Shown here piece after piece: positions 1 to 53,959 of a DNA stretch of 64,000 nucleotides. Position 1 is the stretch's first letter; each line of letters opens with the position of its first letter. The position numbers and the translations under genes were made by a program. The notes below the pieces were generated by a model, which saw only the letters and a program-made list of their open reading frames with translations, was not told the DNA's origin and did no database searches. The DNA comes from Chloroflexota bacterium (GTDB taxonomy: Bacteria; Chloroflexota; Limnocylindria; P2-11E), in assembly GCA_027310565.1 (NCBI GenBank), contig DAIDAP010000001.1, positions 1-64,000 on the forward strand, read 5' to 3'.

Positions 1-175
1 CGCATCGCCATCCCAGGCTCCATCCGCATCGCCCAGCGCGTCCCCGTCCGCATCCGCCGACCCATCGGCCTCGCCCAGCGCCGAGCCCTCCGCATCGCCG
101 AGCGCATCGCCATCCCAGGCTCCATCCGCATCGCCCAGCGCCTCGCCGTCGCCGATCCCCGCGCCGTCTCCCTCC
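1..175 (+). repeat. Ser/Ala/Pro-rich linker with a 39-bp direct repeat
   Basis: Bases 1-39 recur exactly at 103-141, an offset of 102 bp or 34 codons. They lie in the giant gene's frame and encode alternating Ala-Ser-Pro and Pro-Ser-Ala units. This is a low-complexity extended linker of the kind that precedes Ig-like domains in exported proteins, and a likely site of length variation by slippage. Confidence 0.8.
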
Positions 176-3100
176 GGTCCGGCCGTCGCGCTCGGCTCGA
201 CGGCGCAGCGCGTCGACGCGGGCAGCGACGCGACCGTGACCGCGACCGTGACCGACAGCTCCGGCGCGCCGCTCTCCGGCGTTACCGTCGACTTCACCGC
301 GCCGGGCGGCACGTTCTCCGGTGCGTCCTCGTGCACCACCGGCGCGGACGGCACGTGCTCGGTCAGCGTGACGAGGCCCGACTACGGCCTCGTGCCCGTC
401 GCCGCGTCGTCGTCGGTGGACGACGGGACGGGGACGAGCACGACGACGACGATCGCGGGGTCGACGAGCGTCGCGTTCCGTGCGCCGTGGACCGTCGCGC
501 CGACGACGACGGGCGGCAGCGCCCTCGGAGTCACCACCGCCGGCGGCGACCTCGCGGTGACCGTCGATGGCGCGACCGAGACGCGTCCCGGTCAGACCGT
601 CACGAGCCTCGGGATCACCGCGCCGGCCGACAGCACGCTCACCGTCGACGCGACGGGCGGGGCCATCGAGGCGCCCATCAGCTACGACGGCGGCGGTGGC
701 ACCAGCGCGGTCGAGGTCAAGGCGGCCGAGGCGACCTTCACCGTGGATCCGAACACCCGCAGCGGGGCGGCCACGACGCCGACCGCCGCGGTGAGGCTCA
801 CTTTTTCCAAGGTCTGGACGGTGAAGGCGAGCGGGGCGGGCGCCACGCTCGCGGGACCGCCGGCCGACACGACGTGGGTCCTGAACGGCCCCGGCGCGGG
901 GACGGTCGCGGCGACGACGGCGCCGTCGGGGACGATGGCCTACCAGGGCTTCACCAACCTCAGCGGCGCGGCGAACAACCGGGACACGTTCGTCGTCACC
1001 ACCGGAGCGAAGCTCGCCGGTACCGTCGACGGCGGCGCCGGCGGCTTCGACAGCATGAAGGTCGACGGCGTTCCCGTTCGGGAGAGCAATCCGACGAGTC
1101 CGAATTCGGGAAGCGTCACGACGGCCGGCGGCGACGTCATCACCTACGCCGGCCTCGAGCCGATCGTCATCACGACCCCGAGCGCCGACTTCACGGTGAA
1201 CGGCAGCGCGGTCGGCGACGCGATGACCCTCCAGCCCGACGCCGCGAACCCCGGCAACCTCATCGTCGAGACGAGCCCGACCACGATGGAGAGCGTCTCG
1301 TTCCCGGTCCCCACCTCGTCGCTCACCGTGACGGGCGGCGACGGAGAGGACACCGTGACGGTGGCCGGCTCGATCGCGATGCCCGGCGCGAGCCTCACCG
1401 TTCAGGCCGAGCACATCTCCGTCGCCGCCGGCGCCATCGTCGACACGACCGGCGGAGCGACGGACGGCGCGATCACCTTCACGGCGGCGAACGCCCAGAC
1501 CGGCTCCGAGACCTCAGGGGTGGTCACCGCCAGCGGCTCCGCCGACGTCACGGTCACCGGCGCCACGCTCCGTGGCGGTACCATCCACCTCTCCGCGACC
1601 TCGACCCTCACCCCGGCCAACCCGTCCGCCCGGCGCATCGCGCTCTACGCCGACTCGACCGCCACCGTGGCGGTGACCGGCTCGACCATCGAAAGCAGCG
1701 GGAACACCACCTTCTCGGCGACCTCGGGCGTCACGGCGGCCATGAGCGCGGCCGGCGACCCCGGTCAGACCGACACCGCCAAGGACGCCGCGATCGCCGC
1801 GTCGCGCGTGACGAGCACCGCGCTCGCCTCGATCACCGGCGGCACGACGACCGTGACCGGCGACCTCGCCGTCACCTCGGCCAACACGGTCTCCGCCACG
1901 ACCACTGGCGACGCGACCTCGTCGACCGGCGGCGCGGGGATCGCGCTCGCGAACGTGACACTTGTCACGCGCTCCTTCATCACCGGCGATGCCGGCGTGA
2001 CCGCCGCGAGCGTCGCCGTCGCGGCCGACTCGGATGGCGCCGCGACGAGCACCGCGAAGGCCAGCCCGAACGGCTCCTCCGGCAACGACGACGACGATCC
2101 CGCCACCACCGACGACAGCCCGAGCGGCCGCACCGGGGACAACGCCAGCACCGCGGACGGCGCGGTCGGCGTCGCCGGCTCACTCGCGTTCAGCCGCCTC
2201 GCGAGCCAGACCGAGGCGTACGTCGCCGGCAGCGGCGGCGGCACCGTGAGCGTCACGACGACCGGCGCGCAGTCGGTGAAGGCGCGCACCAAGGCGACCG
2301 GCGGCGCGACGGCGGATAGCAGCGCGGTCGCCTCCGGCGGCACCGGTGTCGGGGTCGCCGTCGCGGTGCACCTGGCCGACGTCTCGACCTCGGCGCGCAT
2401 CGGCACCGCGGACCTTGCGGCGCCCGGCGGCGTGAGCGTCGAGGCGACGAACCCGACGACCGCCAGCTTCACGACCTCGTCCACCTCGGGCGTCGGCGAC
2501 GGCTCGTCCGTCGGCGTCGCGGGCGCGCTTTCCGTCGGCGTCGTCTCGCTCACGACGCACGCCGGGATCGACGGCGCCGCGACGGTCGGCGCGGCCGGCA
2601 CCGACCTCGCCTTCACGTCCAGCTCCGGCCTCTCCAGCACCGTCACGGCGACGCCGACCGTCTCGGGCGGCGCGAACGTCGGCGTCGGCGCGTCGGTCGC
2701 CCTCCAGGTCGTCGACTCGACGACCGACGCGACCGTCTCGGGCGGCGCGACCGTCTCCGCCGACGACCTCACGCTCGACGCCACGAGCACCAACGTCGTC
2801 ACGACCACCGCGACCGGCGGCGCGGCGGGCGGCACGGCGGTCACGCCGGTCGTCGCGCTCACCATCTCGAACCTCCCGACGACAGCCTCGATCGGCACCG
2901 GCGCGACGCTCACGCTCACCGGGAACGTCGCGGTCCGGGCGGCCGACACCTCGACCGTCACCACGACGGCGGCCGGCGACGCGAACGGCAGCGACGCCGC
3001 CGTGGGCGCGTCGCTCGCCCTCGGCTTCGCCGCCCACTCGGCGACCGCGACGGCCGGCAGCAGCTTCACCACGCCGGGCACCGTCGAGATCACCGCGGCC

Positions 3101-33100: not shown

Positions 33101-36100
33101 GCCGGCGCGACCGCGAACGTGATGCAGGTCGCGCAGCAGGTCACGTTCACGCCGAGCAACTGGTACGCGCAGGTCACCGTGCCGCTCCTCGCGGACCCGG
33201 CCTACGACCTGCAGCCGGGCCGCGGCGACCTCAAGACGTTCCCGAAGCGCAAGCACCTGCTCTCCGGCATCCGCGGCCCGCTGGCGGTCGAGGGTGGCGT
33301 CACCGCCGCCGACCGCTCGCTGAAGCGCGCGGTGCTGCTGCCCGGCGAGGCCAACGCCGCGCCGTTCCAGGTCGCGGCGCAGCCGCCGGAGTGGCAGATG
33401 ATCGACACGCTCAACGTCTTCGCCGACGGCAGCCGCGAGAACCTCGTGGGCGAGATGACGTCGACCGCGATCACCGGCCTCAACATGACGCAGCCGCTCG
33501 ACCTGCGCGCGTACTGCGGCACCCGCCCGTGCCCGTTCGGCGAGCCCGGCGTCTACCCGGGCGGCATCTCCTACGGGACGATCTCGCTGGACGCGAACGG
33601 CGGGTTCCAGACGGACGGCAACGCCTCGACGATCGAGGTCCTGAACCTCTTCCTCGGCGAGGGCAACGACACCTTCACCGTCACCTCGACGCTCGTGCCG
33701 GCGCTCGAGCTCGCGAACAACGGCACGCCGCGCGCCGCGGCGCACGGCGGCATCACCACCGTGCACGGCGGCGGCAACAGCGCGCTCCGGATCACCGGCA
33801 CGTTCGACACCGGCGCCGGCGCGATCACGCGCACCGACGGCGTCGACTGGACGACCCAGGGCTTCGCCGTCGGCCAGCAGATCACGACGACCGGCGCGAT
33901 CGCGGGCTCGTTCACGATCACCGGCGTCGCCGGCTCGGACTACGGCCCGAACAGCATGCTGCTCGTGACGCAGAGCGAGGGCGCGCCGCTCTCCGCGCAG
34001 GCCGGCGCGGCCTCCACGGTCAGCGTGCGTGACCAGCTCGCGGCGCTCGGGGCCTTCGACCTCGCGGGCAACGCGGTCGTCCGCCGCGACGGCCAGCCGT
34101 GGCAGGCGCTCGGGTTCGCCGCCGGCCAGCGCGTGACGATCGCGGTCGCCGGGGTCGGCGTCCGCACGGTGACCGGCTTCGGCAACTCGGCGTACGGCGA
34201 CGGCACGGCGCTCCTGGTGGACGGCGCGGCCATGACCGCGACGGACGCGTCGGGCACCGTGGCCGCCACCGACCGCATGCCGTCCGGCAACGTGCGCATG
34301 GGCGGCGACCGGATCGTCGTCACCGGCGGCGCGTCCACGACGGCCGCGGGTGGCCCGGCCTCGCCGCTCGTGGTCTACGGCGACACCTCGCAGGACGGGA
34401 CGTGGTACGCGGGCCGCACCGACGTCATGTCGCTCGGCATCTTCGGCGACAAGCCGTTCGCGCACGAGGAGGGCGTGCCGGTCACGATCAGCGTGTCCGG
34501 CGACGGCCTCACCGGCACGATCACGCGCGGCGACGGCAGGGCCTGGGTCGACACCGGCTTCGCGGTCGGCGCCCAGCTCGCGGTGAACGGCGTCCTCTAC
34601 GGGACGATCAGCCGGACCTCGGCGAGCGTGTGCGCGGCGGTCGCGACGGGCTGCACGACGATCCCGGCGAACGTCATCAAGCTCACCGCCCTCACCGCGG
34701 ACTTCGCGGCCGGCGGCGGGACGAAGGACTTCCGCGTCCGGAACCGCGTCGGCAACGGCGCGCCGTTCTTCGTGTACCCGCTCGCGACGGCGTTCGCGAA
34801 CCCGGGCAACGACGTCATCGACGCGAGCGCCGCGTTCTCGGCGTCGCCGGCCGGCGCGCTGCCGACCGTCGGCATCACCGCCTACGGCGGCGCGGGCGAC
34901 GACCTGATCCTCGGCACGCAGACCGGCGACCACCTCGCCGGCGGCTCGGGCGACGACCGCATCGAGGGCGGGCGCGGCGTCGACCTCATCTACGGCGACG
35001 ACGGCGTCAACGTGAACGTCATCACGCGCGTGCTCACGCCCGTGTGGCAGAACACCTCGGCGAAGCCAAACGCCGACCTGCTCGAGGCCGGCCGCGACGT
35101 CCTCTACGGCGAGGGCCCGCGCGCGGTCCGGACGACCGTCCAGGACGACGACGCCGACGTGATCTTCGGTGACTTCGGCGAGGTCCTGCAGGACACCCTC
35201 GGCGCGCGCGACACGACGCGCGTCCAGACCGGGCTGCAGCGCATCCAGACCACCCAGGTCGCGTCGCTGCGCAACGTGGAGTCGCGCGCCCTCCAGGAGG
35301 GCGCCGACGACACGATGTACGGCAACGTCGGCCGCGACGTCCTGGTGGGCGGCCCCGGCTCGGACGCGATCGACGGCGGCGTCAACGACGACCTCGTGTT
35401 CGGCGACAACGTCGTGCTCGCGTGGCGCGACCGCGACATCACGACGACGCGGTTCCAGACGCTCAGCGGCACGCGCCTGTACAGCCGCACCGACCTCGAC
35501 GGCGCGAACGCGTCGATCAGCTACGACAACTCGGGCCAGCTCCTCGTCAACGGGACCGCGCGCGCCTACCGCACGCCGGACCAGAACTACCCGTGGTGGG
35601 CCGAGTACCTGCTCGCGAACCTGTACCAGAACGCGTCCATGGACGCCGGGCTCACCGGCGCGGGCTCGTTCGGAAACGACTACATCGCCGGCGGCGCGGG
35701 CCACGACATGGCCTTCGGGCAGCTCGGGAACGACACGATCCAGGGCGACGGCTCGATCGACTTCATCTCGGCGTGGCCATACAACGCCGGCCGCGTCGGC
35801 GCCGTCCGCACGCCGGCCGGCTGCGCCGGCAGCGTCTGCGACTACACCGGCCCGCTCACCATCTGGCCGTCGTTCGAGGCCGCGACGGACGGCGACGACT
35901 ACATCGAGGGCGGCGCGGGCGCCGACGTCGCCTTCGGGAACCTCGGACAGGACGACATCGTCGGCGGCTCGTCGTCCTTCTTCAGCCTGATCACGCCGTT
36001 CCAGCGTCCGGACAAGGGCGACCTGCTCTTCGGTGGCGCGGGCACGCGCGTCGGCCGCAACGACGAGACCGTGTTCGCGACCGACGCGCACTCGCGCGAC

Positions 36101-39100
36101 GCGGACGTCATCGTCGGCGACAACGGCAACATCGTCCGCATCGTCGGGACGAGCGGCGCCGACGCGAACCCGCTCGCCTCGCCGCTGCGCTTCGTCTACG
36201 ACAATTACGGCGGCCGCGGCATCGTGGTCCGCGGCGTCACGCTCATCGACTACACACCGGGCGGCCCGGACTTCCGTCCCGACCTGTTCGCGCTCGGCGC
36301 GGGCTGCAACGGCCTCGTCATGAGCGTCGACATCGGCTGCGGCGACGAGCTGCACGGCGAGTCCGGCGACGACACGCTGTACGGCGGCGCGGGCGCCGAC
36401 GTCTTCTTCGGCGACGCGCAGGACGACGACATCATCGGCGGCTGGGGCAACGACTGGATGTCGGGCGGCACCGGCCAGGACGGCATCCTCGGCGACGACG
36501 GACGCATCTTCACCAGCCGCAACAACGCGACGGTCGGCGAGCCGCTCTACGGCGTCGCGCCGCTCCTGGCGACGGACCCGGACACGCGCTTCAGCAACGG
36601 GAACGTGCTGGACGAGCTCATCTACACGCCCGGCAACGTCCAGATCACGACGATCAACCTCGCCGGCCGGCTGAACAAGGCCTTCGACGTCACGCCGTTC
36701 AACCTGCGGCCGAACGCGCTCGGCGCGGACGATCCGTTCTTCCGTCCGGGCTTCGCCGACGACATCGTCTACGGCGGCCTCGGCAGCGACTTCCTGCACG
36801 GCGGCTCGGGCGACGACGCCATCAGCGGCGCCGAGGCGCTCGTGGAGTCCTACGGTCAGCGCTACGACGAGGCCACCGGCCTGCCGGTCGGCGTCGTGCG
36901 CAGCGACTGGACCACGCCGTACAACGCCGGGAACATGCTGCGCTTCGGCGCCGACGCCGACGCGTGGCACAGCAACCAGCACGTCGCCTCGCGCCTGGGC
37001 GAGTTCGCCCTCTACGACGAGTACGACCCGCGCCGCATCGTCCGGCTGAACGACGACGGCACGAAGGTCACGAGCGGCGCCGGCGGCAGGGAGTTCTTCC
37101 TGAACTTCGTGTCGAACGAGGGCGTCGTGCGGCCGGCGGGCACCAGCCCGGACGGCGTCCCGTACCCGTCGGTCTGGGACGACGGCGCCGACGCGATCTT
37201 CGGCGGCCTCGGCAACGACTGGTCCGTCGGCGGCACCGGCAAGGACACGATCTTCGCCGGCTGGGGCAACGATCTGTCCAACGCCGACGACCGGCTCGGC
37301 ACGACCGGCGCGACCGACGAGGCGCCGGACACCGCGCCGACCTACGAGGACCGCGTGTACGGCGGCGCCGGGCTCGACGTCCTCATCGGCAACACCGGCG
37401 GCGACCGGCTCATCGACTGGGTCGGCGAGTTCAACTCGTACATCGTCCCGTTCGCGCCCTTCGGCATCGCGACGGTGAGCCGCCAGGTGCCGCCGATGCT
37501 CTACGAGTTCCTGTACGCCCTGTCGAAGAGCATGGGCGCCGACCCGACGCGCACCGCCGAGACCGGCAACGACGCGGCGCGCAACGGCGAGCCGGACGGC
37601 GAGATCGGCCTCATCACGCAGAAGGACAAGGGCCTGTGGCAGACGCAGACCGGCGGCCCGACCGACCCGCAGCCGGGCAACATCCCGGGCGGCAAGCGCG
37701 ACGTGCTCCGGTCCGCCGACTTCAACGACGGCTCGGTCTCGTCGTTCGCCGTCGACAGCGGCTCGTTCAGCGTGGTGAACGGCGCCCTGTCGGTGACGGC
37801 GACGAGCACGAGCGGCGACGCGGTGGCGGTCTTCTACCAGGACGACTACCTGCCGATCTACTACGAGGTCCAGGCGTCGGTGAACACCGCGAAGCCGCTC
37901 GCCGGGTACAAGGCGAACTCGTACGTCATCTTCGACTACTTCTCGCCGACCGACTTCAAGTTCGCCGGCATCGACATCTCGACGAACAAGGTGGTCCTAG
38001 GCCACCGCGCGTCGTGGGGCTGGGCCGTCGACGCGCAGACCCCCTATCAGCTCAAGCCGGAGACCAACTACGGTCTGCTCATCCAGGTGAACGGCACGGC
38101 GGTGTACGTGAACGTCGACAGCAAGAAGACGTTCTCCTACACGTACGCGCCGCGCATGATCGACGGCGAGGCGAACGGCCTGAACAAGGGCCTCGTCGGC
38201 GTCGGGTCCGACCAGTCGAAGGGCGCGGTCGACAATATCGCCCTGCAGATCGTGCAGCCGGAGATCACGATCGACCGCACCGAGACCTACGACGACGGCG
38301 CGGCGAACCTCGCGGCGCAGCCGCAGACCGGGTCGTGGAGCGTGAGCGGCGGCCGCGAGACCGGCACCGCCGCCGCCGGCGCGACGGCGATCCAGACCGT
38401 GGACCTCGGCAACACGCGCGGCCTCTCCACCGAGTCGTACGTGGAGCTCAGCACGAACGTGAAGACCGCGGTGAGCGGCGGCATCGTGTTCGACCAGTAC
38501 GGCGCGACCGACTACAAGCTCGTCTCCGTGGACGTCGCCGCGCAGCGCATCGTCATCGGCCACGTGAGCCCGCGGAGCGGGTACGTGGTCGACGCCTACA
38601 TCGCGAAGGCGCTCTCGGCCACGACCGACTACACGCTCCAGCTCTCGCTCAAGGGCGCGTCGGTGGCGGTCACGCTCTCCGGCGCGTACGTGACGACCTG
38701 GGGCTTCAACGGCGCGGTCGTCGACGGTGCCTACGGCCTGGTGGCCCGCGGCGGCTCGGCCTCCTTCGACAACACCCGCTTCCGCACCGACGACCGCGCG
38801 TTCGCGCAGCCCGGCAGCGTCCTCTCCGCGAGCGGCACCTTCTCGGGAAGGAGCGCGCCGCCGGCGGACGAGGGTGCGCTCCCGGCGCTCCTCGATCAGG
38901 CCAAGGCGTACTGGTCGGCGCGGCTGGGCATCCCGCTCGCGTCCCTGGACGACGTGCGCATCGCCGCGGCCGACCTGCCGGGCCTCGAGCTCGCGGTCGT
39001 CGTGGGGCGGACGATCTACATCGACCGCGACGGCGCGGGCCGCGGCTGGACGACGACGACCCTCACCGACACGATCACCCAGGCGCTCGGCCGCATCCTC

Positions 39101-39112
39101 GGCGTCGTGTAA
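2..39112 (+). CDS. Giant multidomain surface protein/adhesin, 5'-truncated by window edge (>=13,036 residues)
   Basis: One uninterrupted reading frame runs from the first bases to the TAA at 39110-39112. The frame is open at the left edge, so the start lies outside; the in-frame GTG at 236 falls inside a domain and is not the start. Domain order by in-window residue: Ser/Ala/Pro linker (1-58); Big_1-like Ig domain (60-155); beta-rich region with haemagglutinin-like repeats (160-720); ten supermodules of about 400 residues (720-4,650); further beta modules; two 'GGL.DG..YY' modules (5,336-5,547); two CBM5/12-like inserts (5,974-6,115); second beta array (6,130-8,060); low-repeat region; RTX-like and Calx-beta-like segments (10,170-11,060); RTX nonapeptide array (11,600-12,470); two concanavalin-like modules (12,567-12,927); short tail. 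It is probably a cell-surface fibre or adhesin binding calcium and perhaps polysaccharide. Secretion route and anchor are unseen because the N-terminus is missing. No catalytic domain was recognised. Confidence 0.93.
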   Translation, partial: ASPSQAPSASPSASPSASADPSASPSAEPSASPSASPSQAPSASPSASPSPIPAPSPSGPAVALGSTAQRVDAGSDATVTATVTDSSGAPLSGVTVDFTAPGGTFSGASSCTTGADGTCSVSVTRPDYGLVPVAASSSVDDGTGTSTTTTIAGSTSVAFRAPWTVAPTTTGGSALGVTTAGGDLAVTVDGATETRPGQTVTSLGITAPADSTLTVDATGGAIEAPISYDGGGGTSAVEVKAAEATFTVDPNTRSGAATTPTAAVRLTFSKVWTVKASGAGATLAGPPADTTWVLNGPGAGTVAATTAPSGTMAYQGFTNLSGAANNRDTFVVTTGAKLAGTVDGGAGGFDSMKVDGVPVRESNPTSPNSGSVTTAGGDVITYAGLEPIVITTPSADFTVNGSAVGDAMTLQPDAANPGNLIVETSPTTMESVSFPVPTSSLTVTGGDGEDTVTVAGSIAMPGASLTVQAEHISVAAGAIVDTTGGATDGAITFTAANAQTGSETSGVVTASGSADVTVTGATLRGGTIHLSATSTLTPANPSARRIALYADSTATVAVTGSTIESSGNTTFSATSGVTAAMSAAGDPGQTDTAKDAAIAASRVTSTALASITGGTTTVTGDLAVTSANTVSATTTGDATSSTGGAGIALANVTLVTRSFITGDAGVTAASVAVAADSDGAATSTAKASPNGSSGNDDDDPATTDDSPSGRTGDNASTADGAVGVAGSLAFSRLASQTEAYVAGSGGGTVSVTTTGAQSVKARTKATGGATADSSAVASGGTGVGVAVAVHLADVSTSARIGTADLAAPGGVSVEATNPTTASFTTSSTSGVGDGSSVGVAGALSVGVVSLTTHAGIDGAATVGAAGTDLAFTSSSGLSSTVTATPTVSGGANVGVGASVALQVVDSTTDATVSGGATVSADDLTLDATSTNVVTTTATGGAAGGTAVTPVVALTISNLPTTASIGTGATLTLTGNVAVRAADTSTVTTTAAGDANGSDAAVGASLALGFAAHSATATAGSSFTTPGTVEITAAGTSTTATSAESSANGSQGTGSGAATPDAQSASQRTFANGLASSNGATGSGSLPATPPANTSGGAIAVAAAIAVNLANTTSSATIPTGITVGSGGLTVWSSALTDAKANADGTATAARAPPAAIGAAIAINLASVTNTATVAGTANGPATVRALVTTGGDGRDDFEAKAVAGSGGGSVSVAGAFALNIVGLATRATVSGAVAAGAGDVSLEAASNAKTITTSLPAVQSSTTLGVGASVALAIVNDGVSAEIAGVSGDDVTLSATAADETVTTATAGVSGGGVAVAPAVAVAISNVATRAEKKPGPINSPTGAVTFTASTDATANTTASGDTTSSGSAAVGAAIALTFASHTASATTLADLSAGGAVTFTAATTSRTSSSATASAAGAPGQGSGGAPAGGVDGQVAGERGAADAQASGAGGSGSGGTSAPSASTSAGPISVAAAIALTISGASATATIPAGVTVNAGGMLTLHSQLEGDAATTANGSATTSGSAGIGAAVAITLANLVNEAKIDGTTSSAGLALTADMASSHDLSAQATSGAGGGGSVGLAGSFALVVGTITTTSQVGPGATWSRPPPQNDVAISASSGSTSSATADAATSGASSVGVGASVALNLITVTTNATIGAGATLAGVDDLTLAASSTNTMTTTAKTGASGGGVAVAPAVAVAISNVATRAEKQPGPINSPTGAVTFTASTDATANTTASGDTTGGTAAVGAAIALTFASHTASATTLADLSAGGAVTFTALGASNASSNATASAKGAPGEDSPDRPSGQTVDSLIAGERSHADSTAAANGGTNSGSKATPKAESSEKDGSGNSKPVQVAAAVALTISDVTQRATVPAGIAISTPGAVTLSAKGNTDSTAKADGSATTTGPATGTTAGAAIAIDLDFDTTDASCGDGCEINAGSLTLEAKAQTVGADSTNTSGAEATSGAGGGKNSVAGSLAVDIVIASSTAKIGDGATITLIGPSADVSLTADPTAVEYAKALPAKDGGSGAAFGLGLSIAVAVVDDTTTAAIGDGVTLTGARNLTVSATGGHTLTVEAENGAKATLSGGDAVTPVIAVAISLADTSATIGTGGTLTTTGTLTLHAEQAASASAKATGATSAPDNAIGFAVAFTLALHSVTATTNRSLSSGGALTIEALGWSGASSEAKASAAGAKGEDDASRSGRTVDDDIKDQRDLGQKKAAEGSASSSSKVAGAKATPKAESSEKDGSGNNKPLQVAAAIAVSIGVVDQRATLPAGFTLNSGTAATKLSAKGNTDSTAKADGSATTTGPSTGDTVGAALALNVAVVTTEASCGDGCEIDAGSLTIESKLNEVGTDVTNTYGAEATSGAGGGKNSVAGSLAVNVVVASSRATVGDNSTIALTGPTADLTLSADPTAVEYAKALPAKDGATGASFGLGLSIAVAVTDDATAAAIGDNVTLTGARNVLITADGSSGTTADAENGAKATLAGGDAVTPVIAVAISMVDTSATIGTGGTLNTSGALTLHAEQGASATATAKGSTTAPDNAIGFSIAFVLALHSVEATTQRSLSAGAGLVVEAFGASDASSDAKASAAGAKGEDDSSRSGRKVDDDIADQRSFGQKKAGDGSAGSSSKVAGAKATPKAESSEKNSSGQSTPLQVAAAIAVTISIIDQKATIPAGLTINAGTSALTLSAKGNTDSTAKADGQATTTGPATGNTIGAAVAVNVAVVTTEASIGGGATINAGSLTLESRTQTVGADSANTFGAESTSGAGGGKNSVAGSLAVNIVLASSTAAIGDGAQVTLAGATPDLALTADPDSTSTTKALAGTASGSAFGLGLSIAVSVVSDETTATIGDEAVVTGARNVTLAATGGHASVVEATNGAKATAAGGDAITPVVAVAISIVSTEATIGTQTGGTLTASGAITASATQSASVSSKATGASTAPDNAIGFSIGFTLALHSAVATTARSLQAGGAISFTALADSAASSEAKASAAGAASEDSTSRDKADGSGKKSVDSDIQDQRDLGTSKAGEGSSSTGSKVSGAKATPKAESSEKNSSGQSTPLQVAAAIAVTISIVDQKATIPAGLTINAGTSALTLSAKGNTDSTAKADGQATTTGPATGNTIGAAVAVNVAVVTTEATIGANAQVNAGSLSLESRTQTVGSDSANTFGAESTSGAGGGKNSVAGSLAVNIVLASSTAAIGNGAQVTLAGGTGDVTLAADPDSTSTTKALSGGATGAKFGLGLSIAVSVVSDETTAAIGDEATITGARNVTLTATGGHASVVEAENGAKATGSGSNAVTPVVAVAISIVDTSATIGTQTSGDGTLHATGAIALAAEQNASVSSKATGSTSAVDAAVGFSIGFTLALHDTIATTARSLQATGPVSITATASSGASSTATSSAAGAAAEDDSSRTKAGGGQKSVDSDIADQRDLGTSKAGEASGSTGSKVSGAPSTPKAESSEKDGSGNNKPLQVAAAIAVTISVVSQKATLPAGLTITSGGAVALVAKGNTDSSAVASGTATTTGPQTGTSVGAAIGVNVVFDTTEASVGAGATVTGTSVDIESRTRTVGSDSANTFDAEATSGAGGGKNSVAGSIAFNLVSKSSTASLDDGSTVTIAAGGTGDVSVIAGSDSSSTTKALSAKGALSTDFGLGLSIAVSIVLDDTRGDVGDGTSITGARNLAIQANGGHSLVTEGANGAAATNGTAVTPVVSVNFSRVRATANLATGPPTTLTGGLDVSASQRASSTTKATGDTSASGTAVGVSIAVTISIHNVDAQVHRSVFAAGPISIQALGSSNSGSDASASAAGSPDEDDASNKNADSSQKTVDQQVQQQRGFTDGKANDTFGSGSDSTGAGATPSAQTSDRDGGGQKKKVTVAAAVAVTVALSEQTASIDGGLIVRSTGGALTLRATGNTDAASKADGSAVKTAPKTDTAVGAAIAITFAQPRNDAIVGDLAQIGGTAVTIEATPTDVSGDTKQVFDAESTSGAGKGKNSIAGSLSVNIVLSHNEARLGADTLTTIFAGGTGDVRVAAAATGETTTKALSAEGASSTDFGLGLSIAVAVVIEDTLALVQDGAVITGARDLVISATGGNALTTEAKNGAKATTGTAITPVVAVDFAQLRTTARLGTLAGTTTLGGALDVRAEQTAGASTKSTGNTSSGSTAVGISIAVTIALDTVEASVNRSVNATGAVSVRALGSSANSAEAKASVSGAPDKDTDTSGKNANQKADDQLSFLNDTSTENGGTSSGQTQSPKASTSGDGSSSSGTPIDVAGAIAVTVALTTSRAFFADGITITSGGMATVKSSANTDAITTADGTQVASGGNGVGVAIALNYLEIKNTATTGNTTITSNGLDVEAVMTDVSGDKTHTVSASAKSGAGSKKVGVAGSLALNIVNGTRTEATVRGGATVNAGTGDITVRAESTETVTAAGVADAKAGTVGVGASVSLNILTTDHTWAIVEDGATLLNGRDVTITAASTETVTTTTKAGSDGQDGIAPAVAVAIVLPDTKATLGTPGSDLTATGDVTVSATFTGVVRSSGDADAAGSSVAVGAIIGVNVVLVDTAATTSRSITSAGAVTITSTSTVDASDEVHASAKGESQSGASSDTQASNSVNKNGNSSGFSLPSANQQASDGNSQSSGQSGNSGGSVGVAAAIAVNWVDIKNRATVADSLTVRGTGAVLVGATHEVDATAKATGLAYSLSSSDAVVGAAVGFNYVKLESKGTIGAGSTVSGAGVTAEAVTVSGQRNDIVSWGLAAAGGQSDTSVAASVGINYVNFDVAATIGAGSTITSTGVLGAHASAPLGLQNLAISGAAGTGGAVGAAIAVNILIIHTDASIGANVNATATGAVTVTAVAGLTSLPVTGVPYLDDILDALSITNSFSSVAASGAAGTGDYAVGGSVIVDVFDLRTRAWIADGVTINPTGPVPGGSSALVSASAPANLVNVAGALAVTSGSAGIGAAIYVDIVDQDTRAYIGNGVTLRVGGDVTVSTAAGLDFFGVAASAGGSTSAGVSGSFGILLAGKNILPGTDDGTRAYIDGGSLTPTTVSAGGSLAVTASAPNAYKLIAGQISVGSSAGVGVSASILVVDGRVTATTGSFDTLDATGGDVTVTATTSENVTLIAIGGSVGGTAGVAGSAAVNVLSNTTTAGIGDGATLTAGGDVTVAATDTTEILSMAGTLAVGGTAGVGAAADVGVINKTTTASVGANATLTVGGDLTVDAISSEKVTSMSVGASFGGTAAVTVNAGVPVYTITTNASIGDGTTVNADGSVRVSADESLKLDVIAGNLSGGGTAAVGAAVAVPIITKETHASIGDYAQVNAKGLSGVDVKTGAYTVTSIDTRFRQSAVSGNTIDLGYAHGFTAGQELLYDSGGGAPIGGLTDGAVYYVRSTGATTVQLEDAAGNPITLSGGGTGENHRLIPTNQAGVRDDESPRFDPATDRSGSTLNLPYTLKQNGSPVTIAENDGVVYSSGGGDPIGGLVDGRTYYAHVVGANQIQLMDKKSTDGGTVIPLTNNGTGRSHSLVLSGMQPAGDASLYGPRTIAATETTGFRGVGVTATNSDELAMVGVSAGITGGVAVNLAGAIDVSKVNTSASIGTNGKVNCGLTCAANVAGADAAQSVRVAASNQFYELGIASSLAVGFTAGVAVPVGVRVIRLNADATIGDDTKVNARGDISVTANAKDTILSVVAGAGGGTVGVAGSVGVTLVRLHTFAGTGDSVQMNADGDVLVSASDDTKLQLIQVGLAGGFVGVGAAVGVATLDKDTEAFIGTNNTVNGRGNGAGLSGIRSGDYAGSSFGVLGAGAFHGVAVQASSSEDIFGLTASVGGGFVGVAGGVQVTLIGLVTKALVGANTDVNGTVSGASASQSVNVAAVDAAKTLTVAGGVGGGFVGVAGGVDIGTLDMTVQAAVGTGATVRAKADVDVFALSRKDVQTYALSIGGGFVGVAGSVTDWSVGEQATTTYQDDGGGETKGAWTSGTTYGKGDVVTYGGQKYYANQTTTDPSTAPDGNATDWAVVETKQPLQSSSGDSVTSADQIASGGDASCGDLSCSDSGPGYTSAVDGASVRDAGAWTSGQTYKQGDVVTFGGDKYVSRQVTTDASTDPNANTTDWNPYTSSASADKTNQRMSGGFGGASSGLAGAAPSGGVTAAATGGARPLPLGTTATVNGALIAGGSARVRALDDIKSQALAGSLAGGVVGVSAAVAIFSVKANAEASVSSTGSISAGPSLGNEVEVYARANESTKGYAIGGATGLGAVGGQVIVLDSNVTQNAHIDTGATIPQAGGGVFVKAGADGAKRVVDTLSIGAGFGAVAAGASISMNTTSGDTRAEIGNVAVGTDVQGGGTVRGITVSATQDAKPTATSYSVQVGGAGALSGSVAVVKYSGTTRAASGAHGPLGSGGYSVTATGLHGGVNAKTLNVTAGGLAIGVTVAIAKDERNTEAAITGGSTSTTGAVNVTADSTNTAYAWAPAATAGSAVSVNVMLPIARVSGRTTADLNGTITASTSVTVHALSEYRAKAQVTMGAVSLVGLSGAYADAEVTSGAYTRAAIGSTASITSSGAVQVLADLKSAQTFRGSDTLAQRILGGNAPDVVARNEAIALVDSIALGGFAAAGVYASRAEVNGAVRAELSGDVTSSSSVLVKAKGANLADARTLAISASGLGGFGASIQFAEVGSSADVEAKSADGNNDQEVTSGGRVEFAAESDNDALVRTDVAAGGALAGIAVSVPTARVAAATTASVEGNVSAGSAGINVHATSDNDVAVTIWALSVGSLSAAVTWGEAKITNAADTDAQVLANAAFSAPSGAVEVLATSQNHASSEGKSVAGGALAVNVMKSISEVAGGTLASFDGDVTSTSPRTASLTVRARGENQAVTDAFIAAISLSLSGAVNLASSQITSDASTDAQILSSANVTVSGAVTVDAGLTTDTTTADTVGGSIVSRPAHYQNYALANLGNVSGGAIALGATLADAKVDGGVRATMNGTIAGSGSVSVTAGGNMTAASKTLFVAAGLAGLSYTDTSAEVGANADVVANADGTVSSSGLIAVTAGSVNRATTTTNGGAFGLVAGSATLPRAQIGGATTSDFGGNAITASGLTVTTTSDNDVTVTVSVISVGAFAGALTEAYAKVTSDADTDASVTGPANVNSGTVSISSTSDDDATATINGVTGAAIALGITRPKAQAFGETRAYAGQGADINAGAVTITAFGGTSATATTNATSISAIGGGFLEAEATAGGIVDAFIGQPATSGASTATTSVDVGSGTITVSADADVDATATANGVSGAILSISDFNPRATASAAVRAYVRDNVDVVAGTLTVKAGEAADKVTLDASATSNVVSVSLAGGGGVVPDAKTTGSVEAFLGAPGGVAGVNTAATKIDVSGTLTAKAYSQLNATAIANGTAAAGVAANIQDASATAGGTTRAYAGDGADVEAGLLALDANATLTADATTKGVSVGLGSLSGVESTATVTAVTEAYLGKSAASVSAGTITVDLVGPTTLAATSNGTANATARGANVGLAAIGLLYPTAKANGVTRIYIGPDTDLGATSVTGTADSTMKANATTTVTAIGGITATDVQVLSDIQATTAAFIGKNADVTASGLVSLSAVARNTSTAKTDALSAGLIGISLYDLDAKTTSLTQAYVGDKAHVSVGSLVLSAESTDAPIVSFDFTGISGFSGGDTSLSAINTATVEAFIGPDAVSSGSASDPTQVTAEGTGGISLSATSHADVDVQLDLLSLSLLGDVGLSDTIAKSNATVRAFLGDYAEVDSGTGALLVSALSDPDVRARGQGFSAALGFSGTGSTATAEASGTVRAYTKDHATIEGNASTFQAQFTPSGNRVYASIEIGSVALLAGIAGGVATATSTPTVEAYVAANTTVDIDGTLTVTAGSSQTATAAAKGTGGGLVGYGAAQSTANADGTVNAYVAGDVVGPAAAAGANSVSISASSANTANASSQAVSGGLFADSDNQATAYANPTLRAYVAGSSQVVTTSNLRIAASAMPEADASSRGVSGGLIGIGGSESTASASPNVEAYIGTGASITAGGNIEVLASSDIQTPGGQGPTYLIESVDTANDTLHVVGNGLNTGDTIEYDNSNGNPDACSTTTPITGLTGAECATDNEGNTFILRRAYNVIGAGADDLSLGSQFNGADVNTVNDTITFGSAHNFISGDRVVYAKPSGGATIGGLDLTSTAYYVLVIDEKTIRLVATQSQATDPDAFVKSVAVSSISGSTLTLAGGGGFSSGQAVTYTAPKPLDFSAGQVDVNNGSAGSTADLTDVAANDNIVFIDTNADSANEGKAIAHGFANGDKIIYGATSGDTLAASTIAPLVDGGIYRVKVINSSTIQLKRNDLLTTQVNYVRRTSGGDQIIRTDGNSWTDSGFGLTSGETLLITGSPVNNGTWTIASASGDTLTLTQTNQVTGTRVTTSTQFAAVSCGTSCTEYRVIRTDATAWATNTNFTGGGTIEVTGAGSNNGTYTVLSLSGATFVVSQPVTNTTVSATLSRPVMSTFDEPVIPLVPRKAATQTSIAFGGSASNATFTRSSGGDWTNFDFAVGSTISISNSTGNDGTYTVLAGSTAITIRASRIGGAAISGGTQSNVRISLVKGPVTGTPPTQVQGHTSTNDVHSVLRTGDVPLSYTNLGGGTLVDGQTYYVVGASGSDFSIALTPGGTALTFSTSGLRAGALHSFTPTVDLTSAPGGTDHQLRIDLTSSTVSGTQRITGVGGVPLGSTLSGSGDGLTKAESTGSGGGFVGVGSNTATTNTNPTVKARISTGGGALVVAEGDVRVEATSKSNSQAYSSNATGGFVGIAGADARGNASHTTWAYIDANVRMVAAGDLTVLATSDITATAQSKSRSGGFVGYADADSRVSMNYDTKSSVKDGADVLTDGNAKVWTDARTNGDANAYASGIGAGGDGQSNTNASVGTGNSTAEILNGAELVAKQISFKAGLSLLRLFAHGEAYGAGFYAEGEDDSDVGGDINNTVTLGANTLVTGLEGVDLLARVDGVNTRPESFSRSTGLFGWVSSDANNDTDIDARVDGAAGGPLRTSPVAGAVVTAGPRATSGGILEHPSESDHLALYIDTKLGSNISQTWSVRASKRSLAGGGSSGSNNATADDTTAFNSDVLILSGRSPYLFVASNGGITAVEVTAYVDAVNNRVYVEDISNPGAGDVVVRSKSVSGSTGTWVFRDTLMAVTIINESSYDLYLNNITVLDTSQPLVWLSQNDPSSASVSISFDIRRDQAPTVIDIRNLSSSNVLFNGTVENPIGITSVENTGGDIRSTRSRDVSSGGRVSLIRTNILRIDADAGDVGQGPSQRLNVDIVDATGVPRGTTFRTGRVSPITNAIYLGYEQQFFTGELVRYTAADTFNELTNGGYYVVLVQNDGISIKLANTAPPNTPIVLTVSSSATLATHTLTPVTRFSVDAPYGAAWLDVEAHRRNGGGGTYTVVVDDIATRDDADLRLQVSVSDPGTGSSGGVLVKYAGGPGAGVTRYTHFLSPDGSAPLVAPGFGLGATETQVTSTYDFRQLDSSGNRTLPGITSTDGNIIVTSVRTATAAPFTNVVGIFEGSSAGTVGTAGAKRIDVLTNGFITLYEQSGDLRAGRITSTADDVILYSPARIVDATGDLTPSAEADVAGVNITMCASTIRPSSLETRTADDAGCATNGGLLGGIGEPTNFLEIDVDVLNGAPLGVLRAYDTFAASTLGVYLTETSGDMKIDTVDTKGDASLVTLSGSLVDARGGGSGDNTPTSLFNVRANNVWLDANGGSVGTPAGTPDATGNDLKIDSGWLATSIVGAEADQSIYLTETLGALRLRLAQALAGDIRLTVRESAAQGEDLVLLQPTGTILVVENAPRTIPHGLVNAPAGWVLLRVGDNVTLGNTAPIATSISDAAGNTQVLAGEWIDVYGDFGDLDAGWGSVMTLHGTITPGTLTGACAGAIDPAVRTCNLTRIFGNGDADTFDFEQTYLGGKTRVYGSNTPTPYATPIPATAPLCGSGRTCDDLFLVKQLQTMNVAAGHTLTLDGQESGDTYLVYTSGSRGASRDYVINVLDTGAPADGVDYLAICGADTTDGPAIGAGQRCDYATRLAPQPAPTDPTQTLVDDIWLLRRTSYIAFGAQTTPNEVADRPAFVALLHTTLDVASPAGTAITPSFDVERVNYDTAINGRLEVYGLGGNDYYAVDDNSAITTLDGGAGNDTFQIGQIYGTKRDSRPSTAEGGSYALGDTSGGSLTPQDVFGTVATTRGWLSAGSSQPLVAKGGTGDDSFTVYSNQATLRLEGEDDNDLFVVRAFALAQTTGTCGGPLGVNDTSCRIVWISAEDQVAMPRLTSGFSTAAESDIRTGAGNNQVEYNINAPVSIDGGNGFDKVVILGTEYADHIVVTFKAIYGAGLSVTYANVEVLEVDALEGDDTIDVLSTQPFVLTRVIGGLGNDTINVAGDVAGDVVSRNLEGTTGTINHIVKSADEMYDGLLADGIDLSVARPTRGAVVVTETAGFSAVREAGCFSLTSTTCIRALDSYDVRLATAPTQNVYVTVSATLTGQEEQSNGDTFLITTGAVPGAPGAFTRTITVNGSPAVVPVRAVVLTFTPGNWSTPQNVYLFAVDDARPEGDRVVVSAQSVISRDQAFNAAAVRNVEVKVMDDDLAGIVTIERDAGGEPDNTSIVLEGPGAPYEVTDQVDVTLAKAPTPDTTGGPTTTVVLVTPSDNRICLASADPRFAAADGSCPVGGTTYTLTYTAADWSSPVNLVLRARDDFVAQDPRSTTLEYTILGSSSATDYLRPPFASYPDLPVRSRVDVMSIDDETPGVFLLESGGRTLVQCGSTCGLAGTGDSYTVRLTKAPTGDVTIAVVTDGQTDVTTGGRLSLADVGGTRATQLFAGNVTASGTTLARGAGADLGSFIDDGFAAGQTVRVTIGGSPVDARITAISSDGKSMTLDTAVSGSGAASIAVLSDRGIYTGSLTYTASDASDTSATGNGGSLVRTDGKSWLDSGFIEGQLIRINGVSGVFKIESITDAVAGSGDLDKAILTAALPSGGALAAGATANVMQVAQQVTFTPSNWYAQVTVPLLADPAYDLQPGRGDLKTFPKRKHLLSGIRGPLAVEGGVTAADRSLKRAVLLPGEANAAPFQVAAQPPEWQMIDTLNVFADGSRENLVGEMTSTAITGLNMTQPLDLRAYCGTRPCPFGEPGVYPGGISYGTISLDANGGFQTDGNASTIEVLNLFLGEGNDTFTVTSTLVPALELANNGTPRAAAHGGITTVHGGGNSALRITGTFDTGAGAITRTDGVDWTTQGFAVGQQITTTGAIAGSFTITGVAGSDYGPNSMLLVTQSEGAPLSAQAGAASTVSVRDQLAALGAFDLAGNAVVRRDGQPWQALGFAAGQRVTIAVAGVGVRTVTGFGNSAYGDGTALLVDGAAMTATDASGTVAATDRMPSGNVRMGGDRIVVTGGASTTAAGGPASPLVVYGDTSQDGTWYAGRTDVMSLGIFGDKPFAHEEGVPVTISVSGDGLTGTITRGDGRAWVDTGFAVGAQLAVNGVLYGTISRTSASVCAAVATGCTTIPANVIKLTALTADFAAGGGTKDFRVRNRVGNGAPFFVYPLATAFANPGNDVIDASAAFSASPAGALPTVGITAYGGAGDDLILGTQTGDHLAGGSGDDRIEGGRGVDLIYGDDGVNVNVITRVLTPVWQNTSAKPNADLLEAGRDVLYGEGPRAVRTTVQDDDADVIFGDFGEVLQDTLGARDTTRVQTGLQRIQTTQVASLRNVESRALQEGADDTMYGNVGRDVLVGGPGSDAIDGGVNDDLVFGDNVVLAWRDRDITTTRFQTLSGTRLYSRTDLDGANASISYDNSGQLLVNGTARAYRTPDQNYPWWAEYLLANLYQNASMDAGLTGAGSFGNDYIAGGAGHDMAFGQLGNDTIQGDGSIDFISAWPYNAGRVGAVRTPAGCAGSVCDYTGPLTIWPSFEAATDGDDYIEGGAGADVAFGNLGQDDIVGGSSSFFSLITPFQRPDKGDLLFGGAGTRVGRNDETVFATDAHSRDADVIVGDNGNIVRIVGTSGADANPLASPLRFVYDNYGGRGIVVRGVTLIDYTPGGPDFRPDLFALGAGCNGLVMSVDIGCGDELHGESGDDTLYGGAGADVFFGDAQDDDIIGGWGNDWMSGGTGQDGILGDDGRIFTSRNNATVGEPLYGVAPLLATDPDTRFSNGNVLDELIYTPGNVQITTINLAGRLNKAFDVTPFNLRPNALGADDPFFRPGFADDIVYGGLGSDFLHGGSGDDAISGAEALVESYGQRYDEATGLPVGVVRSDWTTPYNAGNMLRFGADADAWHSNQHVASRLGEFALYDEYDPRRIVRLNDDGTKVTSGAGGREFFLNFVSNEGVVRPAGTSPDGVPYPSVWDDGADAIFGGLGNDWSVGGTGKDTIFAGWGNDLSNADDRLGTTGATDEAPDTAPTYEDRVYGGAGLDVLIGNTGGDRLIDWVGEFNSYIVPFAPFGIATVSRQVPPMLYEFLYALSKSMGADPTRTAETGNDAARNGEPDGEIGLITQKDKGLWQTQTGGPTDPQPGNIPGGKRDVLRSADFNDGSVSSFAVDSGSFSVVNGALSVTATSTSGDAVAVFYQDDYLPIYYEVQASVNTAKPLAGYKANSYVIFDYFSPTDFKFAGIDISTNKVVLGHRASWGWAVDAQTPYQLKPETNYGLLIQVNGTAVYVNVDSKKTFSYTYAPRMIDGEANGLNKGLVGVGSDQSKGAVDNIALQIVQPEITIDRTETYDDGAANLAAQPQTGSWSVSGGRETGTAAAGATAIQTVDLGNTRGLSTESYVELSTNVKTAVSGGIVFDQYGATDYKLVSVDVAAQRIVIGHVSPRSGYVVDAYIAKALSATTDYTLQLSLKGASVAVTLSGAYVTTWGFNGAVVDGAYGLVARGGSASFDNTRFRTDDRAFAQPGSVLSASGTFSGRSAPPADEGALPALLDQAKAYWSARLGIPLASLDDVRIAAADLPGLELAVVVGRTIYIDRDGAGRGWTTTTLTDTITQALGRILGVV
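182..475 (+). other. Big_1 (invasin-like) Ig domain within the giant protein
   Basis: The stretch has the usual Big_1 landmarks: a 'DAGSDATVTATVTDSSG' opening strand, 'PLSGVTVDF', a Gly/Thr turn, 'TGADGTCSVSV' and a closing alanine-rich strand. Two cysteines (in 'SSCTTG' and 'GTCSV') could form a disulfide. Such domains act as rigid spacers in intimin/invasin-type adhesins. Confidence 0.7.
3930..4200 (+). repeat. Near-identical repeat block, copy A (partner 5061-5330)
   Basis: This block matches 5061-5330 at an offset of 1131 bp (377 codons) with few differences, mainly third positions and one Lys-to-Gln change in 'EKKPGP'/'EKQPGP'. It forms the 'AVAISNVATRAEK' portion of two neighbouring supermodules. 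Confidence 0.8.
5061..5330 (+). repeat. Near-identical repeat block, copy B (partner 3930-4200)
   Basis: Second copy of the block at 3930-4200 within the giant gene. The pair differs in period (377 codons) from the later units (390-408 codons), so unit length varies along the array. Confidence 0.8.
7907..8395 (+). repeat. Near-identical repeat block, copy A (partner 9131-9619)
   Basis: Aligned at an offset of 1224 bp, the first 290 bp of this block differ from 9131 onward at only about four positions. Identity then drops over a short stretch (about 8200-8240) and resumes through the 'GKNSVAGS' anchor. This is much closer than other pairs of units and implies recent duplication or gene conversion. 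Confidence 0.85.
9131..9619 (+). repeat. Near-identical repeat block, copy B (partner 7907-8395)
   Basis: Second copy of the block at 7907-8395, offset 1224 bp (408 codons). It spans the end of the charged loop, the 'ATPKAESSEK' motif and the following beta strands. Confidence 0.85.
16009..16640 (+). other. Two 'GGL.DG..YY' insert modules in the giant protein
   Basis: Two tandem units of about 90 residues share the pattern 'G...GQ..LYDSGGG.PIGGL.DG..YYV........QL'. Related units recur near 24200-24720, 24770-25080, 25840-26110 and 27990-28250. Similar short modules are found scattered in other giant bacterial repeat proteins; their function is not known to me. Confidence 0.6.
17921..18058 (+). 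other. CBM5/12-like carbohydrate-binding insert, copy 1
   Basis: The segment follows the compact CBM5/12 (ChiC/chitin-binding) pattern: 'AW.....Y..GDVVTYGGQKYYA' is followed by Thr/Pro-rich residues and a closing 'DW'. The aromatic positions typical of the family (Trp near the start, paired Tyr, final Trp) are present. It interrupts beta-repeat sequence, so it looks like an inserted sugar-binding head. Confidence 0.6.
18212..18346 (+). other. CBM5/12-like carbohydrate-binding insert, copy 2
   Basis: Second copy with 'AWTSGQTYKQGDVVTFGG' and a closing 'DW'. It is separated from copy 1 by about 50 residues that contain a Cys-rich 'SCGDLSC' element. The tandem arrangement would raise avidity for a polymeric glycan. 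Confidence 0.6.
18400..24170 (+). repeat. Second beta-repeat array of the giant protein
   Basis: The array consists of degenerate units built around 'T.AY.GDGADV.AG....A' and 'SVG..G....A.ATA'. They are more diverged and shorter than the supermodules of 2150-13950, and they lack the charged Lys/Glu loops. It is probably a continuation of the beta fibre. Confidence 0.65.
30540..31330 (+). repeat. RTX-like glycine/aspartate repeats, first cluster
   Basis: Motifs such as 'GGAGNDTF', 'GGTGDDSF', 'GEDDNDLF', 'GGNGFDKV', 'LEGDDTIDV' and 'GGLGNDTI' match the GGxGxDxUx calcium-binding nonapeptide of RTX proteins. They are irregularly spaced, giving isolated calcium-stabilised beta-roll turns rather than one continuous roll. 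Confidence 0.7.
31440..33180 (+). other. Calx-beta-like domains of the giant protein
   Basis: Three successive segments show the pattern 'V.E.......D.Y.VRL..AP...V.V.V' followed by 'LTFTPGNWSTPQNVYLFAVDD'-type strands, as in Calx-beta domains. Acidic turns ('VMDDDLAG', 'SIDDETPG') sit between them and could bind calcium. Confidence 0.6.
34790..37430 (+). repeat. RTX nonapeptide (haemolysin-type calcium-binding) array
   Basis: Many GGxGxDxUx-type motifs occur, including 'GGAGDDLI', 'GGSGDDRI', 'GGAGHDMA', 'LGNDTIQGDG', 'GGAGADV', 'GESGDDTL', 'GGWGNDWM', 'GGLGSDFL' and 'GGTGKDTI'. Long insertions separate the clusters. The array should fold only when calcium is bound, as after export. Confidence 0.8.
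37700..38785 (+). repeat. Two concanavalin/LamG-like modules near the C-terminus
   Basis: Two units of about 180 residues share 'F.DG......G.WSV..G', 'FDYFSPTDFK..GIDIS...V.LGH' (second copy 'FDQYGATDYKLVSVDV', 'IVIGH') and a closing 'VDN'/'FDNTRF'. The pattern resembles concanavalin-like carbohydrate-binding sandwich domains, so they may be ligand-binding heads. Confidence 0.55.
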
Positions 39113-42318: not shown

Positions 42319-42319
42319 G

Positions 42320-42466
42320 GTGTTCGAGGAGGCCGAGCGGCTCGCCCGTCGCGATCCCACGCTCGTCACCACCAAGCTCGACGAGGTCGTGAAGGCTGTC
42401 GGGGGATGGCGCGACGCATTCACGGCCGCGGCAGCGCGGTCGGTCCTGGAGCGTGTCGACCGGTAG
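42320..42466 (+). CDS. Possible 48-residue ORF downstream of the SpoIID gene
   Basis: A GTG one base after the preceding TAG opens a 48-codon frame ending at TAG 42464-42466. Codons follow the local GC-rich third-position bias, and the product is highly charged and helix-prone ('FEEAERLARRD', 'KLDEVVKAVGGW'). No family is recognised. It could be a small coupled gene or the remnant of a longer one; no separate ribosome site is seen. Confidence 0.3.
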   Translation: MFEEAERLARRDPTLVTTKLDEVVKAVGGWRDAFTAAAARSVLERVDR

Positions 42467-42742
42467 TCGCGCAGGGGGACGTCGTCGAGAGCGACACAGG
42501 CACGATCATCCGCGTCGCGGCGACGAGCGACCTCCGGTGGGCGGGTACGCGTTTCCCGCGTCTCAGTTGGGCGACGGTCGTGGGCCCCCCTCGCTCGAGG
42601 AGCCGCTTTTCCGCCTCCCTGCCTGCTGCCGGTCGTGACGAATCGGTCGCCAGACTCGTTCGAGAGGGTGACAGCGCTCCCACGCCGATGCCAGAATGGC
42701 GTCGGCGTCGGGGAGTGTGGCCGGAGGAAGAAGGGGGTCCGC
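42467..42742. other. Intergenic region before the amidase gene
   Basis: No convincing gene was found. An open frame here ('GDVVESDTGTIIRVAATSDLRW') has no start or domain support. The stretch holds a long hairpin (42682-42708) and purine-rich ribosome-site sequence at 42723-42737. Confidence 0.5.
42682..42708 (+). promoter_or_regulatory. 12-bp inverted repeat/hairpin upstream of the amidase gene
   Basis: Arms ACGCCGATGCCA (42682-42693) and TGGCGTCGGCGT (42697-42708) pair over 12 positions with a single G-U wobble around a three-base GAA loop. It ends 34 bases before the proposed TTG start. It could be an operator, a leader hairpin or a terminator without a U tract. Confidence 0.55.
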
Positions 42743-53916: not shown

Positions 53917-53959
53917 CCCGGGAGCGACAAAGAGCGCCCGCCGCTCGTCCTAGGCGGTA

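What the first reader, a model, noticed from the sequence alone, without database searches (positions are those of the whole stretch)
2..39112. A single reading frame of more than 13,000 codons
The frame is uninterrupted from the left edge to 39112 and is not complete, so the protein exceeds 13,036 residues, among the largest bacterial proteins. Its modular plan of linker, Ig, long beta arrays, sugar-binding-like inserts, Calx-beta and RTX is that of a giant surface adhesin or fibre, but in an apparently monoderm-like high-GC genome, where the export route of such a protein is not obvious.
Basis: partly seen in the sequence, partly recalled or inferred. Interest (0 to 1): 0.75.

Follow-up and report, generated by a model that had tools for sequence, protein, structure and literature searches.

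The report
Giant surface fibre protein, Chloroflexota bacterium
An uncultured bacterium carries one unbroken gene for a protein of about 13,400 amino acids that most likely forms a long, sugar-binding fibre on the cell surface; it is a large and unusually complete relative of giant surface proteins already known from many bacteria.

Summary
The frame 2..39112 is real: no internal stop, and coding signature (GC3 0.945-0.991) along its length. Its start lies on contig C33 of the same genome, whose end overlaps the window start by exactly 68 bases in frame: 13,398 aa, about 1.31 MDa. Synteny supports the join: mreB-mreC precede it on C33, a SpoIID gene follows it; genus-mate G002 has mreC next to SpoIID, and G003 has mreBC, N-terminus, middle and C-terminal block on one contig. 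The genome (genus-mate recorded as Chloroflexi) showed no Omp85 or TolC match. The protein has one strong N-terminal hydrophobic segment, an unnamed N-terminal domain seen so far only in Chloroflexota, a Pro/Ser/Ala linker, Big_1, LktA-type repeats (predicted beta-solenoid), two CBM5/12, RTX repeats, two lectin-like domains, and a truncated metallopeptidase remnant. Its C-terminal ~600-700 aa recur at 41-65% identity in giants of many phyla. Best reading: Sec-exported, envelope-held, sugar-binding fibre; function and anchoring are inferred. Calx-beta was not confirmed. New variant of a known kind.

The parts
2..39112 (+). giant frame; continues to the left on contig C33 (C33:145921-147073), total 13,398 aa
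1..68 (+). exact 68-base overlap with the right end of contig C33, in frame
   Evidence: only C33 and the window matched this stretch at >=90% identity in the own genome
2..175 (+). end of the Pro/Ser/Ala linker (about 180 aa in all, giant residues ~241-421)
164..496 (+). stretch holding a Big_1 (bacterial Ig-like group 1) domain
   Evidence: E 4.3e-12, 46.4 bits, cut-off 34.9
2675..24166 (+). LktA_tand_53 (NF012206) repeats, scattered through this stretch
2663..14063 (+). higher-order repeat of about 400 aa in about 9-10 copies, each of about seven 53-57-aa units; predicted beta-solenoid
   Evidence: limits approximate
17882..18361 (+). two CBM5/12-like carbohydrate-binding modules
   Evidence: 47.6 bits, two stretches
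34880..37300 (+). RTX (HemolysinCabind) repeats, limits approximate
37013..39109 (+). C-terminal block shared across phyla
37730..38812 (+). two concanavalin-A-like (CBM66/galectin/laminin-G-like) domains, from the model
38813..39109 (+). remnant of a matrixin-like metallopeptidase domain: the motif HExxH reads QALGR and the protein ends there
39193..42318 (+). downstream gene: SpoIID/LytB protein with N_BRCA1_IG domains; right flank of the mreC|SpoIID interval

Best explanation
One gene, lying between mreC and a SpoIID gene, encodes a 13,398-aa extracellular fibre. Shown: the intact frame, its start on C33, its neighbours, the modules, and absence of matches to Omp85 and TolC. Inferred: an N-terminal Sec signal or signal-anchor (residues ~11-30) takes the chain across the single membrane; the N-terminal domain and/or an uncleaved anchor hold it at the envelope; the disordered Pro/Ser/Ala linker crosses the wall; Big_1 and the LktA-type repeats fold outside as a long beta-solenoid stalk (my estimate, recalled rung spacing: order of 0.15-0.2 micrometre); CBM5/12 modules and the two C-terminal lectin-like domains, with Ca-binding RTX repeats, bind sugars of neighbours, hosts or matrix. 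The matrixin-like tail of its relatives has decayed here.
For: Coding signature throughout. Join of C33 and window: exact in-frame 68-base overlap; mreB-mreC upstream also in G003 and G004; G002 has mreC directly followed by the SpoIID homologue (57% identity over 844 aa; 355 bases from the mreC frame to the SpoIID frame) and G001 has one frame of 1,024 codons between them; G003 carries mreBC, N-terminus, middle and most of the C-terminal block in order on one contig. N-terminal hydropathy peak 2.42, no C-terminal peak above 1.35 in the last 60 windows, no LPxTG at the C-terminus (the one LPxTG match is at residue 5226). No Omp85/TolC match. LktA repeats up to 210 bits per 3,000 aa (cut-off 50). 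Repeat model pLDDT 81, all-beta, VIA Z 11.5-13.6 to SufB, CsgA, HxuA, EtpA and FHA solenoids. Lectin pair: CBM66 TM 0.79-0.85 by target length. Purifying trend dN/dS about 0.56 in the C-terminal stretch against G004 (0.293/0.524, 1,487 codons; NG86, rough at this GC).
Against: No experiment shows export, anchoring or binding. The hydrophobic segment may be cleaved; no signal-peptide predictor was available. Foldseek gave no significant PDB match for the repeat model (best E 0.43, 14 matches with E<=10), and the tool warns that Z under about 13 for repeats may mean only a common arrangement. The RTX part of the C-terminal model is mostly below pLDDT 50. Related MAGs show frame breaks: G003 has a stop at 37816 and goes on in another frame, G004 likewise at about 19.9 kb on C93 and on C38; assembly error or decay cannot be told apart. 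Two of five genomes of the genus had no match to the C-terminal part or the N-terminal domain, so the gene is dispensable there.
Confidence: 0.6

Rival explanations
1. The N-terminal segment is an ordinary cleaved signal peptide and the protein is released into a matrix or only loosely held, acting as biofilm scaffold rather than an anchored fibre.
For: No C-terminal anchor or sorting signal; G004 has ARA followed by VP after the hydrophobic stretch, which fits a signal peptidase site by eye. The five giants of Apilactobacillus were found both in lysate and in supernatant (PMC12863079, passages).
Against: The hydrophobic stretch is long (about 20 residues) and followed by a conserved domain; the small residues at the supposed site are not conserved in G000 (ARG) and G003 (PRA).
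Confidence: 0.27
2. It is a degradative or predatory exoprotein: sugar-binding modules target prey or polymer, and the C-terminal peptidase domain is the working part.
For: 47 of 80 relatives keep HExxH in the tail; in 3 of 5 such tails tested Pfam matrixin scored over its cut-off, the other two just under. Neighbours include SpoIID and amidase genes.
Against: In the window copy the motif reads QALGR and the chain ends there; no Pfam match in it or in genus-mate L049. No catalytic family was matched in the stretches searched.
Confidence: 0.05
3. Export by a type I or two-partner route as in diderm RTX or FHA-like adhesins.
For: RTX repeats and FHA-like solenoid.
Against: No Omp85 and no TolC match; no TPS domain among Pfam matches. 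T1SS ABC/HlyD were not searched.
Confidence: 0.03
4. Assembly chimera or decaying pseudogene that merely stays open at high GC.
For: High GC lengthens chance frames; frame breaks in G003 and G004; contig break in the linker.
Against: Codon signature over the whole length, collinear relatives, conserved flanks, no exact internal repeat of 127 bases or more.
Confidence: 0.04

Closest known systems
Leukotoxin LktA-type tandem repeat proteins (NCBIfam NF012206)
   Same: same 53-aa repeat family, up to 210 bits in a 3,000-aa piece
   Different: the diderm LktA system (secretion partner recalled, not searched by name) has no counterpart found here; far longer; other N- and C-terminal modules
Giant RTX proteins with the same C-terminal block in Proteobacteria, Actinobacteria, Planctomycetes and others (80 loci)
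   Same: C-terminal block 41-65% identical; long open frames upstream in 76 of 80 loci run off the DNA held
   Different: 47 of 80 keep HExxH, lost here; 18 genomes of other phyla that I tested lack the N-terminal domain
G131 (11,654-aa frame), another class of the same phylum
   Same: homologous N-terminal domain, middle (44% over 1,758 columns) and C-terminal parts in order
   Different: extra fibronectin-like stretches by eye; no match to the last ~460 residues at the E-value used
Giant1-5 of Apilactobacillus kunkeei (PMC12863079, passages seen)
   Same: monoderm; giant surface proteins with predicted beta-solenoid domain
   Different: 3,000-8,000 aa; solenoid short and N-terminal, alpha-helical rod; SH3b-like C-terminus
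Omnitrophota giant ORFs (PMC10066038, passages seen)
   Same: giant ORFs suggested to serve adhesion
   Different: 39,678 aa with 42 predicted transmembrane helices in Velamenicoccus; different anatomy

Membership tests
LktA-type filamentous repeat proteins | NF012206 repeats over the curated cut-off (50 bits) | tested here: met
   210.1 bits in window:9002-18001 (the two other 3,000-aa pieces 34 and 23.5, under it); single unit 57.1 bits
Two-partner-secreted (FHA-like) adhesins | outer-membrane Omp85-type partner | tested here: not met
   PF01103: 0 matches in own genome; 7 of 14 controls ring
T1SS RTX adhesins (LapA/SiiE type) | RTX nonapeptide repeats | tested here: met
   PF00353 59.4 bits, cut-off 23
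T1SS RTX adhesins (LapA/SiiE type) | TolC-type outer-membrane channel | tested here: not met
   PF02321: 0 matches in own genome; 7 of 14 controls ring
T1SS RTX adhesins (LapA/SiiE type) | dedicated ABC transporter and HlyD | not tested
   no search was made
Sortase-anchored surface proteins | C-terminal LPxTG plus transmembrane segment | tested here: not met
   only LPxTG match at residue 5226; highest hydropathy near the C-terminus 1.35; a sortase gene exists at C8
Metzincin/matrixin peptidases (PF00413) | HExxHxxGxxH zinc site (motif recalled) | tested here: not met
   QALGR at the site and end of protein; no Pfam match
Beta-solenoid fibres | beta-solenoid fold of the repeat | tested here: inconclusive
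   model pLDDT 81 all-beta, VIA Z 11.5-13.6 to known solenoids, Foldseek not significant
Huge proteins over 5,000 aa (PMC11573180) | length over 5,000 aa | tested here: met
   13,036 aa in the window, 13,398 aa joined

The most novel reading that the evidence does not exclude
The N-terminal domain is a new Chloroflexota module that holds giant solenoid fibres at the envelope of bacteria without an outer membrane, possibly laid down along the cell's elongation machinery, since the gene sits directly behind mreB-mreC in three of three genus members that carry it. The mreC|SpoIID interval would then be a site where surface proteins are swapped (empty, a 1,024-codon frame, or a giant).
Probability: 0.15. 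Interest if true: 0.7.

Novelty: new variant of a known kind. Interest (0 to 1): 0.45.

Why it matters
It gives a complete, syntenically anchored example of a 13,400-aa surface protein in a phylum without cultured close relatives, shows that giant LktA/RTX proteins are not tied to outer-membrane export, names an unannotated N-terminal domain (no Pfam match) that recurs at the start of large frames in two distant Chloroflexota groups, and shows an empty site in a genus-mate, so that gain or loss of a 40-kb gene can be studied. If expressed, about 1.4% of the genome (40.2 kb of 2.79 Mb) goes into one surface fibre.

Tried and rejected
Pfam, NCBIfam and PDB-sequence searches with the N-terminal domain: no Pfam match at E<=1 in the 4 members, no NCBIfam match, only two weak PDB sequences at E 0.21 and 0.34, taken as chance. 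A likeness of this domain to subtilisin prodomains (Fervidolysin-like) was by eye and recall only; no search bore it out. PDB sequence search with the repeat profile: nothing at E<=1; with the C-terminal profile: only the RTX part matched. Calx-beta: no match in window stretches, though a Calx-beta domain was found in the relative L083. tRNA next to the empty interval in G001: none. Literature: searches (seven) gave no paper on this protein or on the N-terminal domain; PMC10608941 (passages) counts giant genes (>5000 bp) by class and PMC13212565 (passages) describes class Limnocylindria, to which this genome may belong by size, GC and family pattern (inference). Subscription papers and bioRxiv are not in the library.

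Full report
Observation. The window is G000:C36:1-64000; the genome has 2,794,070 bases in 38 contigs, 97.52% complete, 1.19% contaminated. Frame 2..39112 has no stop before its end. At 73% GC long chance frames exist, so I relied on codon-position composition: GC3 0.945-0.991 in each of 14 blocks. Longest exact internal repeat: at least 100, under 127 bases.

The missing start. A DNA search of the own genome with window 1-3000 found the right end of contig C33. C33 ends with exactly the first 68 bases of the window, and the frames agree. The frame on C33 starts at GTG, C33:145921, and the joined protein has 13,398 aa, 1.31 MDa, computed pI 4.4. The linker repeats near the break, so the overlap alone could mislead; synteny settles it. 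MreB and MreC precede the start on C33 and also precede the homologous starts in G003 and G004. In G002, which has no match to the N-terminal domain or to the C-terminal part, the mreC frame is followed after 355 bases by a frame whose protein is 57% identical to the SpoIID protein that follows the giant in the window; in G001, also without the giant, one frame of 1,024 codons lies between mreC and the start of SpoIID at the contig end. In G003 one contig of 39,395 bases carries mreBC, N-terminus, middle and most of the C-terminal block in order; there the frame stops at 37816 and continues in another frame, and G004 also shows frame breaks. In G003 and G004 other frames lie between mreC and the giant, so the interval is variable.

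Who carries it. Genus-mate G004 is the same genome as G428 (identical hit G:C93:6179-6949), which holds L049, 'Chloroflexi bacterium isolate CF_39'. So the phylum is Chloroflexota; class Limnocylindria is an inference from size, GC and family pattern (PMC13212565 and PMC10608941, passages). No Omp85 or TolC match; one sortase.

Anatomy. N-terminus: hydrophobic stretch with the highest 19-residue hydropathy of the protein (2.42; next 2.05), then a conserved domain (alignment A1) without Pfam, NCBIfam or convincing PDB-sequence match. This domain was found in 3 of 61 relatives, 4 of 400 genomes of the phylum, 3 of 177 of the class, all in this genus, 8 of 42 of the family of G131, and 1 of 20 genomes behind my chosen loci, that one being the genus-mate; 18 of the 20 are from other phyla and had none. 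The sets overlap; distinct genomes with a match number 11. The open frames holding it range from 558 to 11,654 aa, many probably cut by contig ends. Then a linker of about 180 aa, Big_1, LktA_tand_53 repeats (34, 210.1 and 23.5 bits in three 3,000-aa pieces; cut-off 50) with a higher-order repeat of about 400 aa, two CBM5/12, RTX, and the C-terminal block.

Repeat model. AlphaFold2 on 12 rows: pLDDT 81.1, pTM 0.81, all beta except one helix in a low-confidence insert. Foldseek found no significant PDB match. VIA-align on the 25 top chains gave Z 13.6 SufB, 13.3 CsgA (rmsd 11.2), 13.1 HxuA, 11.7 EtpA, 11.5 FHA; the tool cautions on Z near 13 for repeats. I read it as a beta-solenoid, not proven.

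C-terminal block. A scan of genome contigs matched 305 stretches, 253 confirmed, 80 kept. Over rows longer than 250 aa identity is 41.5-64.6%, across Chloroflexi, Actinobacteria, Proteobacteria, Planctomycetes, Cyanobacteria, Verrucomicrobia and others; some loci share a genome. In 76 of 80 the frame runs off the left end of the DNA held, which for some loci is short. Model of 699 aa on 47 rows: pLDDT 72.6, pTM 0.52; residues about 240-600 confident, the RTX part not. These residues match CBM66 (TM 0.79-0.85 by target), tandem galectins and laminin-G pairs. 47 of 80 loci keep HExxH behind the lectin pair; of five such tails tested, three score over the Pfam matrixin cut-off and two just under. 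The window copy reads QALGR and ends; L049 reads QELGH and ends; neither matches Pfam.

Family elsewhere in the phylum. NF012206 in 301 evenly drawn genomes: 3 with a match (own, G045 with an 8,523-codon frame, G131 with 11,654), only the own over the cut-off; 0 of 14 controls. G131 is homologous at N-terminus, middle and C-terminus. G045 lacks the N-terminal domain by eye and ends in other repeats and a hydrophobic tail.

Mechanism. Sec export over one membrane, envelope retention at the N-terminus, solenoid stalk, sugar-binding parts outward; see Best explanation for which steps are shown. Function remains inferred.

Verdict. Real, complete, and larger than first stated; a new variant of giant LktA/RTX surface proteins with a Chloroflexota-type N-terminus and no outer-membrane route.

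Noticed in passing
window 39193-46150: SpoIID/LytB protein and Amidase_2 protein, both with N_BRCA1_IG domains, directly downstream of the giant: a cell-wall-related neighbourhood.
   Followed up: partly
window 50062-51912; L012:5667-8462: Secreted-looking proteins (motif GWVTPFIVQN) homologous to the 1,024-codon frame that fills the mreC|SpoIID interval in G001 (47% over 319 and 42% over 906 columns); L012 copy weakly resembles flagellinolysin.
   Followed up: partly
window 53293-56422: ECF sigma factor followed by a protein with a weak anti-sigma match.
   Followed up: no
L049 and L109 (CF_39 = G004): The genus-mate carries two copies of the C-terminal block on different contigs, 77% and 61% identical to the window's domain, so it probably has two giants.
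   Followed up: no
L067: In a betaproteobacterial MAG a second frame with LktA-type super-repeats begins right after the frame holding the C-terminal block: tandem giants.
   Followed up: no
L060 and L062: A 'Propionibacteriaceae' and a 'Chloroflexi' MAG have nearly identical protein tails: recent transfer or mis-binning.
   Followed up: no
G003:C67 about 14330-15750: A frame of 415 codons that looks like a subtilisin-type protease by eye lies between mreC and the giant.
   Followed up: no
G000:C11:52659-53678: A second MreB gene; each of the five genus members has one.
   Followed up: no
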